DNA of 14,583 nt from Acidobacteriaceae bacterium (GTDB taxonomy: Bacteria; Acidobacteriota; Terriglobia; Terriglobales; Acidobacteriaceae), in the NCBI GenBank assembly GCA_031296355.1, contig JARLFX010000394.1:1-14583 (forward strand). Reading direction: 5' to 3'. The position numbers and the translations under genes are program-made. The notes below the pieces were generated by a model. That model searched no databases. It saw nothing but the letters and a program-made list of their open reading frames with translations, and was not told where the DNA came from. Of this stretch, positions 9,660 through 11,186 are shown piece by piece (within the stretch, counting starts at the first letter, position 1; every line of letters begins with the position of its first letter).

Positions 9660-11186
9660 ATGGCAAAGATACAGGCAGACGAAATAACAGAGCTTCTCCG
9701 CCACCAGATTGAGAACTACTAGCAGCGCGTCCAGGTCGACGAAGTCGGCACTGTGATCTCCCTCGGCGATGGCATTGCCCGCGTCCACGGCCTCGACAAG
9801 GTCATGGCCGGCGAGCTCATCGAGTTTCCCCACGGCATCGCCGGTCTCGCCATGAACCTTGACGAGTCTGAAGTTGGCGCCGTCATTCTGGGCGACTACA
9901 CCGAGATCAAAGAGGGCGACCAGGTCAAGCGCACCGGCAAGATCATGTCCGTGCCCGTCGGCAAGCAGCTCATCGGCCGCGTGGTCAACGCGCTCGGCCA
10001 GCCCATCGACGACAAGGGCCCCATCGACACGCCGGACTACCTGCCCGTCGAGCGCATCGCTCCCGGCGTCATCGCCCGCCAGGGCGTGAAGGAAGCCATG
10101 TCCACCGGCATCAAGGCGATTGACGCCATGATCCCGATCGGCCGCGGCCAGCGCGAACTGCTCATCGGCGATCGCCAGACTGGCAAGACTGCCGTTGCTC
10201 TGGATACCATCATCAACTCGGCGAAGAACAACCTCATCTGCATCTACTGCGCCATCGGCCAGAAGCGTTCGTCCGTCGCGCAGGTGGTGCAGACGCTGGA
10301 AAGCTACGGCGCCATGGCCTACACCATCGTCGTCGCCGCCACCGCGTCAGAGCCCGCGCCCATGCAGTACCTGGCGCCCTACGCCGCCACCGCCATGGGC
10401 GAATACTTCCGCGACAACGGCATGCACGCGCTGGTGATCTACGACGATCTCTCCAAGCATGCAGCCAGCTACCGCGAAATCTCGCTGCTCCTTCGCCGTC
10501 CCCCGGGGCGCGAAGCGTACCCCGGCGACGTCTTCTATCTCCACTCGCGCCTGCTTGAGCGCTCCGCCAAGATGAGCGATGAGCACGGCGGCGGTTCGCT
10601 GACCGCGCTGCCCATCATTGAGACCCAGGCGGGCGACGTCTCGGCCTACATCCCGACCAACGTCATCTCCATCACGGACGGCCAGATATTCTTTGAGACG
10701 GACCTCTTCAACGCCGGTGTCCGCCCCGCCGTTAACGTCGGCCTCTCGGTCTCGCGCGTCGGTTTTGCCGCGGCCATCAAGGCCATGAAGCAGGTAGGCG
10801 CCACCCTGAAGCTCGACCTCGCGCAGTATCGCGAGCTCGCCGCCTTCTCGCAGTTCGGTTCCGATCTGGATAAGGTCACGCAGCAGCAGCTCAGCCGCGG
10901 CAGCCGCCTCACCGAGCTGCTCAAGCAGCCGCAGTTCCAGCCGCTCACGCCTGAGAAGCAGATCGCTATCATCTTCGCCGGCGTCAACGGCCTGCTTGAC
11001 GAGGTGGAAGTCTCTGACCTCCGCGCCTTTGAAGACGGCTACTATCCGTTCCTCGAGGGAACCCATCCCGATGTGCTGACTGACATCGCGACCAAGAAGG
11101 CCCTCGACGATGACCTGCGCAAGCGTCTTACCGCAGCCATCAACGAGTACAAGCAGATCTTCCTCGCGGAGCACGCGAAGAAGTAG
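9660..11186 (+). CDS. atpA: ATP synthase F1 subunit alpha, interrupted by in-frame TAG at codon 21
   Basis: Alpha forms the non-catalytic half of the F1 hexamer and supplies the arginine finger to the catalytic sites. Counted through the stop, the frame has 508 codons, near E. coli's 513. The ATG at 9660 has a good Shine-Dalgarno and encodes a normal alpha N-terminus ([12 protein letters not shown]). Codon 21 is TAG, and the frame resumes at once with [23 protein letters not shown]. The only early restart is GTG 9753 (codon 32), without a well-placed Shine-Dalgarno. The rest is intact: Walker [50 protein letters not shown] and the arginine-finger SVSRVG. After SRVG the sequence reads [15 protein letters not shown] where most alphas have GAAQ and VAGTL. 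It may be a real nonsense mutation, readthrough or a sequence error. Identity is near certain; integrity is not. Confidence 0.93.
9720..9722 (+). other. In-frame TAG within atpA (codon 21)
   Basis: The codons around it are AAC TAC TAG CAG CGC. A single G-to-T change from GAG (Glu) would create it, and Glu fits the family at this place. The peptide before it is 20 residues, nearly the length of the alpha helix that binds delta. TAG ends seven other genes here normally, so the codon is not reassigned. Confidence 0.9.

What the first reader, a model, noticed from the sequence alone, without database searches (positions are those of the whole stretch)
9660..9756. In-frame amber stop at codon 21 of the essential ATP synthase alpha gene
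A good Shine-Dalgarno and ATG start a normal alpha N-terminus. Codon 21 is TAG, and the same frame then continues with typical alpha sequence to a normal end. GAG to TAG is one base change. The operon is otherwise intact, so loss of alpha would be costly. The options are a sequencing or assembly error, a recent nonsense mutation in a culture or metagenome, amber readthrough or suppression, or restart at GTG 9753. Established knowledge: in E. coli the first 22 or so alpha residues form the helix that binds delta. The stop therefore separates almost exactly that helix as a 20-residue peptide, and a restarted alpha would lack its link to delta.
Basis: partly seen in the sequence, partly recalled or inferred. 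Interest (0 to 1): 0.8.

Follow-up and report, generated by a model that had tools for sequence, protein, structure and literature searches.

The report
Probable sequence error in atpA
A stop codon near the start of a soil bacterium's ATP synthase alpha gene is really in the sequence given, but close relatives lack it, and it is most likely a sequencing or assembly error, or else an ordinary private mutation, not new biology.

Summary
In detail: ATG 9660, TAG at 9720-9722 (codon 21), then an alpha frame to TAG 11184-11186. The closest protein found, P0001 on another contig, is identical at 506 of 508 positions. The two differences are codon 15 (Gln there, CAC/His here) and codon 21 (Glu there, TAG here). 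Against the 120 best-listed relatives these are the window's only private residues in alpha (2 of 508); beta has 0 of 480, delta 0 of 179. Each change is one base from the relatives' usual codon (CAG, GAG); they lie 16 bases apart. TAG ends 7 of 12 genes checked, atpA included, so amber reassignment is unlikely. GTG 9753 has no Shine-Dalgarno better than chance, though atpG here lacks one too. No pyrrolysyl-tRNA synthetase above cut-off in 150 related genomes. The window is probably a whole metagenome contig (inferred) and no genome is held for it, so reads could not be checked. Best reading: a local consensus error (about 0.7). Main rival: a real, recent, private nonsense allele (about 0.22).

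The parts
9660..11186 (+). atpA, F1 ATP synthase alpha; 508 codons counting the internal stop
9720..9722 (+). in-frame TAG, codon 21; relatives mostly GAG (Glu)
9702..9704 (+). CAC (His), codon 15; relatives mostly CAG (Gln); second private difference, its changed base 16 from the first
9753..9755 (+). GTG codon 32, possible restart; no Shine-Dalgarno better than chance
   Evidence: duplex -2.7 kcal/mol, 36% of in-frame positions as good or better; ATG 9660 has -4.9, but the real starts of hflX (-2.4) and atpG (+1.9) score no better than GTG 9753
9593..9643 (+). intergenic 51-nt repeat copy just upstream of atpA (copies at 12463 and 14221)
   Evidence: family D2
9044..9583 (+). atpH, delta subunit, intact
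11311..12399 (+). atpG, gamma subunit, frame intact
12583..14025 (+). atpD, beta subunit, intact

Best explanation
The TAG is a local error in the consensus of what is probably a metagenome contig. Two wrong bases, at 9704 and 9720, entered together from one poor read or a poorly covered stretch just downstream of a repeated intergenic element. The organism would then carry an ordinary full-length alpha. Shown here: both differences are private against 120 listed relatives and close together, while beta and delta show no private residue. Inferred: that the window is a metagenome contig, and that the changes arose outside the cell.
For: P0001, on another contig (7815 bases), differs at 2 of 508 positions, exactly these two. 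They are the only private residues among 508 alpha positions (120 relatives), 480 beta (120) and 179 delta (119). Two private changes falling within 6 codons by chance: 2.4% over 508 codons, 1.0% over 1167. Each is one base from the usual relative codon. The 12 genes examined (4086 codons) hold no other internal stop. No internal stop in the 150 match rows shown (my count) from 398 family genomes (367 with a match; further rows not shown), nor in 121 of 121 loci with alpha. The window's delta, P0241, heads a cluster of 3 member sequences on 4 contigs whose longest is 14583 bases, the window's length, so the window is probably one whole contig. The changes lie 61 and 77 bases beyond a repeat copy.
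Against: No reads, coverage or quality values were available. No DNA of the same species could be fetched, so synonymous differences are unknown. Codon 15 is a variable position (Q, E, A; D, K, T and others in distant loci), so His15 alone could be an ordinary strain difference, and then the case for two errors weakens. Two clustered changes can also come from one real mutational event. The clustering test was framed after seeing the data. The alpha relatives were collected with the part from codon 32 on, so likeness of the first 31 codons played no part in choosing them. The repeat-proximity argument is speculative.
Confidence: 0.7

Rival explanations
1. A real, recent nonsense mutation in one strain, perhaps one event that changed both bases, leaving a strain without working full-length alpha or a segregating deleterious allele.
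For: The frame from codon 22 on is identical to P0001, as expected if the loss is very recent. Codon 15 is a variable position, so His15 may be plain strain variation. No template source for the variant bases was found within 400 bases, which neither helps nor excludes a point-mutation event.
Against: Alpha is normally single copy: by my reading of the table, 351 of 367 matching genomes show one match at 1e-100 and 16 show two or three (3 candidates at most scored per genome), so loss should be costly. None of the other 11 genes checked has an internal stop.
Confidence: 0.22
2. Translation restarts at GTG 9753 (codon 32) or later and makes an alpha without its delta-binding helix. The first 31 codons are then free to drift.
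For: Both private changes lie upstream of GTG 9753 and none downstream. The distance from stop to GTG is 30 nt. A weak Shine-Dalgarno is no bar here: the real starts of hflX (-2.4) and atpG (+1.9 kcal/mol) score no better.
Against: Duplex energy at GTG 9753 is -2.7 kcal/mol, as good or better at 36% of in-frame positions. The other 29 of the first 31 codons read as in P0001. None of the 120 listed relatives is shorter than 500 aa. Delta, the partner, is intact. The helix is a stalk contact in E. coli (PMC5214741, passages).
Confidence: 0.05
3. The amber codon is read through, by a suppressor or pyrrolysine tRNA or programmed readthrough, so alpha is made full length.
For: The frame continues without a break. 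UAG followed by C is recalled to be a leaky context (no call).
Against: TAG ends 7 of 12 genes, atpA included. No tRNA in the window. No pyrrolysyl-tRNA synthetase above cut-off in 150 family genomes. The RNA after the stop is not unusually structured (z -1.2). No TAG at codon 21 in the 119 loci that cover it, and no stop inside in the 150 rows shown.
Confidence: 0.03

Closest known systems
F0F1 ATP synthase subunit alpha (atpA; NCBIfam TIGR00962) of Acidobacteriaceae
   Same: 508 positions, 506 identical to P0001; delta gene directly before alpha, as in relatives such as G292
   Different: TAG at codon 21 and His at codon 15
Amber reassignment in phages and pyrrolysine users (recalled; search listings only)
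   Same: An in-frame TAG
   Different: TAG is the terminator of 7 of 12 genes here, one gene only is affected, and PylS was not found above cut-off in 150 relatives

Membership tests
F1 ATP synthase alpha (TIGR00962) | score above the curated cut-off | tested here: met
   785.2 against 484.45 bits for the part from GTG 9753
F1 ATP synthase alpha (TIGR00962) | uninterrupted frame including the N-terminal delta-binding helix | tested here: not met
   TAG at codon 21 in this sequence; no internal stop in the relatives shown
amber-reassigned genetic code | TAG avoided as a terminator and read in many genes | tested here: not met
   TAG terminates 7 of 12 genes; one internal TAG in 4086 codons
pyrrolysine system | PylS in the genome | tested here: inconclusive
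   own genome not held; 0 of 150 related genomes above cut-off, 1 of 14 control genomes above it
programmed readthrough | conserved stop codon in relatives | tested here: not met
   0 TAG at codon 21 in 121 loci, 2 of them not covering it

The most novel reading that the evidence does not exclude
A natural strain makes ATP synthase alpha in two pieces or from a downstream restart, with the 20-residue delta-binding helix separated from the catalytic part.
Probability: 0.03. Interest if true: 0.7.

Novelty: not a real feature. Interest (0 to 1): 0.1.

Why it matters
If real, it would be a natural test of whether F1 can work with the delta-binding helix detached. As it stands it mainly warns against reading one contig's stop codon as biology: a second private change 16 bases away is a useful hint of a local error.

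Tried and rejected
Template switching: k-mers of 8 to 12 covering each variant base have no copy within 400 bases on either strand, so no local donor. Recoding structure: three folds around the stop have z-scores -1.23, 0.74 and 1.61. Pyrrolysine: matches in 133 of 150 genomes at E 1e-3 all lie below the family cut-off; I take them to be other class II synthetases, not checked. Rfam: no match in the window. Same-species genome: not found among 398 family genomes; best alpha 88-89%, best delta 55% in a search of 398 genomes of the family of G091. Both are samples of a larger family, so one may exist. Beta search: the nearest listed is 93-94%, unlike alpha at 100% over 477 aa; I read this as near-identical beta being hidden in clusters, but a strain mosaic is not excluded. 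Literature: no paper on an amber stop at this place was recognised in the listings, and one search returned none; the listings were off target. PMC5214741 was seen as passages only, all others as search listings only. Own genome, suppressor tRNA and second atpA in this organism could not be tested.

Full report
What is there. From left to right the window carries a catalase-related end, a lactonase-like and an SH3-domain gene, DUF4424 and DegT-type genes on the minus strand, hfq, an hflX-type GTPase, two ATP synthase B-type subunit genes, atpH, atpA, atpG, atpD and the start of a further frame at 14398 that I take for atpC by position. atpA starts at ATG 9660 and is interrupted by TAG at 9720-9722, codon 21; the frame continues to TAG 11184-11186. 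The named close relatives are mostly Acidobacteriaceae. The window is 14583 bases, equal to the longest contig of the cluster of its delta protein P0241 (3 member sequences, 4 contigs), and no genome is held for it. I infer that it is a complete metagenome contig.

Relatives. Of the 120 alpha proteins listed (best of 8000 scored), residue 21 is E in 110, D in 9 and Q in 1; residue 15 is Q in 98, E in 18 and A in 4; none is shorter than 500 aa. Among 121 fetched loci with alpha (of 126), none has TAG at codon 21 (2 do not cover it) and none has an internal stop. In the 39 at 80% identity or more (35 genomes), codon 21 is GAG in 34 and GAA in 5; codon 15 is CAG in 37, CAA in 1 and GAA in 1. In 398 family genomes, 367 have alpha at 1e-100, and the 150 match rows shown (my count; more exist) have no stop inside.

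The second change. Aligned with the 120 relatives, the window's alpha has two private residues, His15 and the stop. Beta (480 residues, 120 relatives) and delta (179, 119 relatives, its own entry P0241 left out) have none. P0001 differs only at these two positions. Two private sites within 6 codons is expected by chance in 2.4% (508 codons) or 1.0% (1167 codons); the test was chosen after seeing the data. Against this, codon 15 is a variable position, so His15 could be ordinary strain variation. The pattern suits a short stretch of bad consensus, or one mutational event; it does not suit long decay.

Biology options. TAG is the terminator of 7 of 12 genes including atpA, with one internal stop in 4086 codons. 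No tRNA lies in the window. PylS is above cut-off in 0 of 150 related genomes. The RNA past the stop folds at z -1.2. GTG 9753 has an anti-Shine-Dalgarno duplex of -2.7 kcal/mol, as good or better at 36% of in-frame positions, against -4.9 for ATG 9660; but the real starts of hflX (-2.4) and atpG (+1.9) do no better, so this is weak evidence. Both private changes lie before GTG 9753, which is what a restart would also predict, so restart is not excluded.

Anatomy. Residue 21 falls at about residue 20 of the 513-residue alpha of entry 3oaa, judged from the start of the match (that it is E. coli is recalled). In E. coli the peripheral stalk contacts all three alpha subunits through their N-terminal helices (PMC5214741, passages). 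The 22-residue figure for delta binding is recalled.

Verdict. A real letter in the sequence, most likely not a real letter in the organism. Error 0.7, real recent nonsense allele 0.22, restart 0.05, readthrough 0.03. Reads would settle it.

Noticed in passing
9593-9643, 12463-12513, 14221-14271; 11228-11288, 14021-14081, 14152-14212; 11198-11250, 12420-12472, 14121-14173: Three families of repeats (51-61 nt) lie in the gaps between the genes of the atp operon; one family holds the palindrome GTGCGGGCTTTAGCCCGCAC in two of its three copies.
   Followed up: partly
11311-12399: Gamma is 362 aa against 285-306 positions in the NCBIfam gamma models, which suggests an insertion in its second half; not compared with relatives.
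   Followed up: no
5946-8325: The hflX-type gene lies directly upstream of the two B-type subunit genes; I recognised no a or c subunit gene in the window (not searched for specifically).
   Followed up: no
12583-14025: The nearest listed beta protein is only 93-94% identical although alpha has a 100% match over 477 aa; clustering of the database or a strain mosaic could explain it.
   Followed up: no
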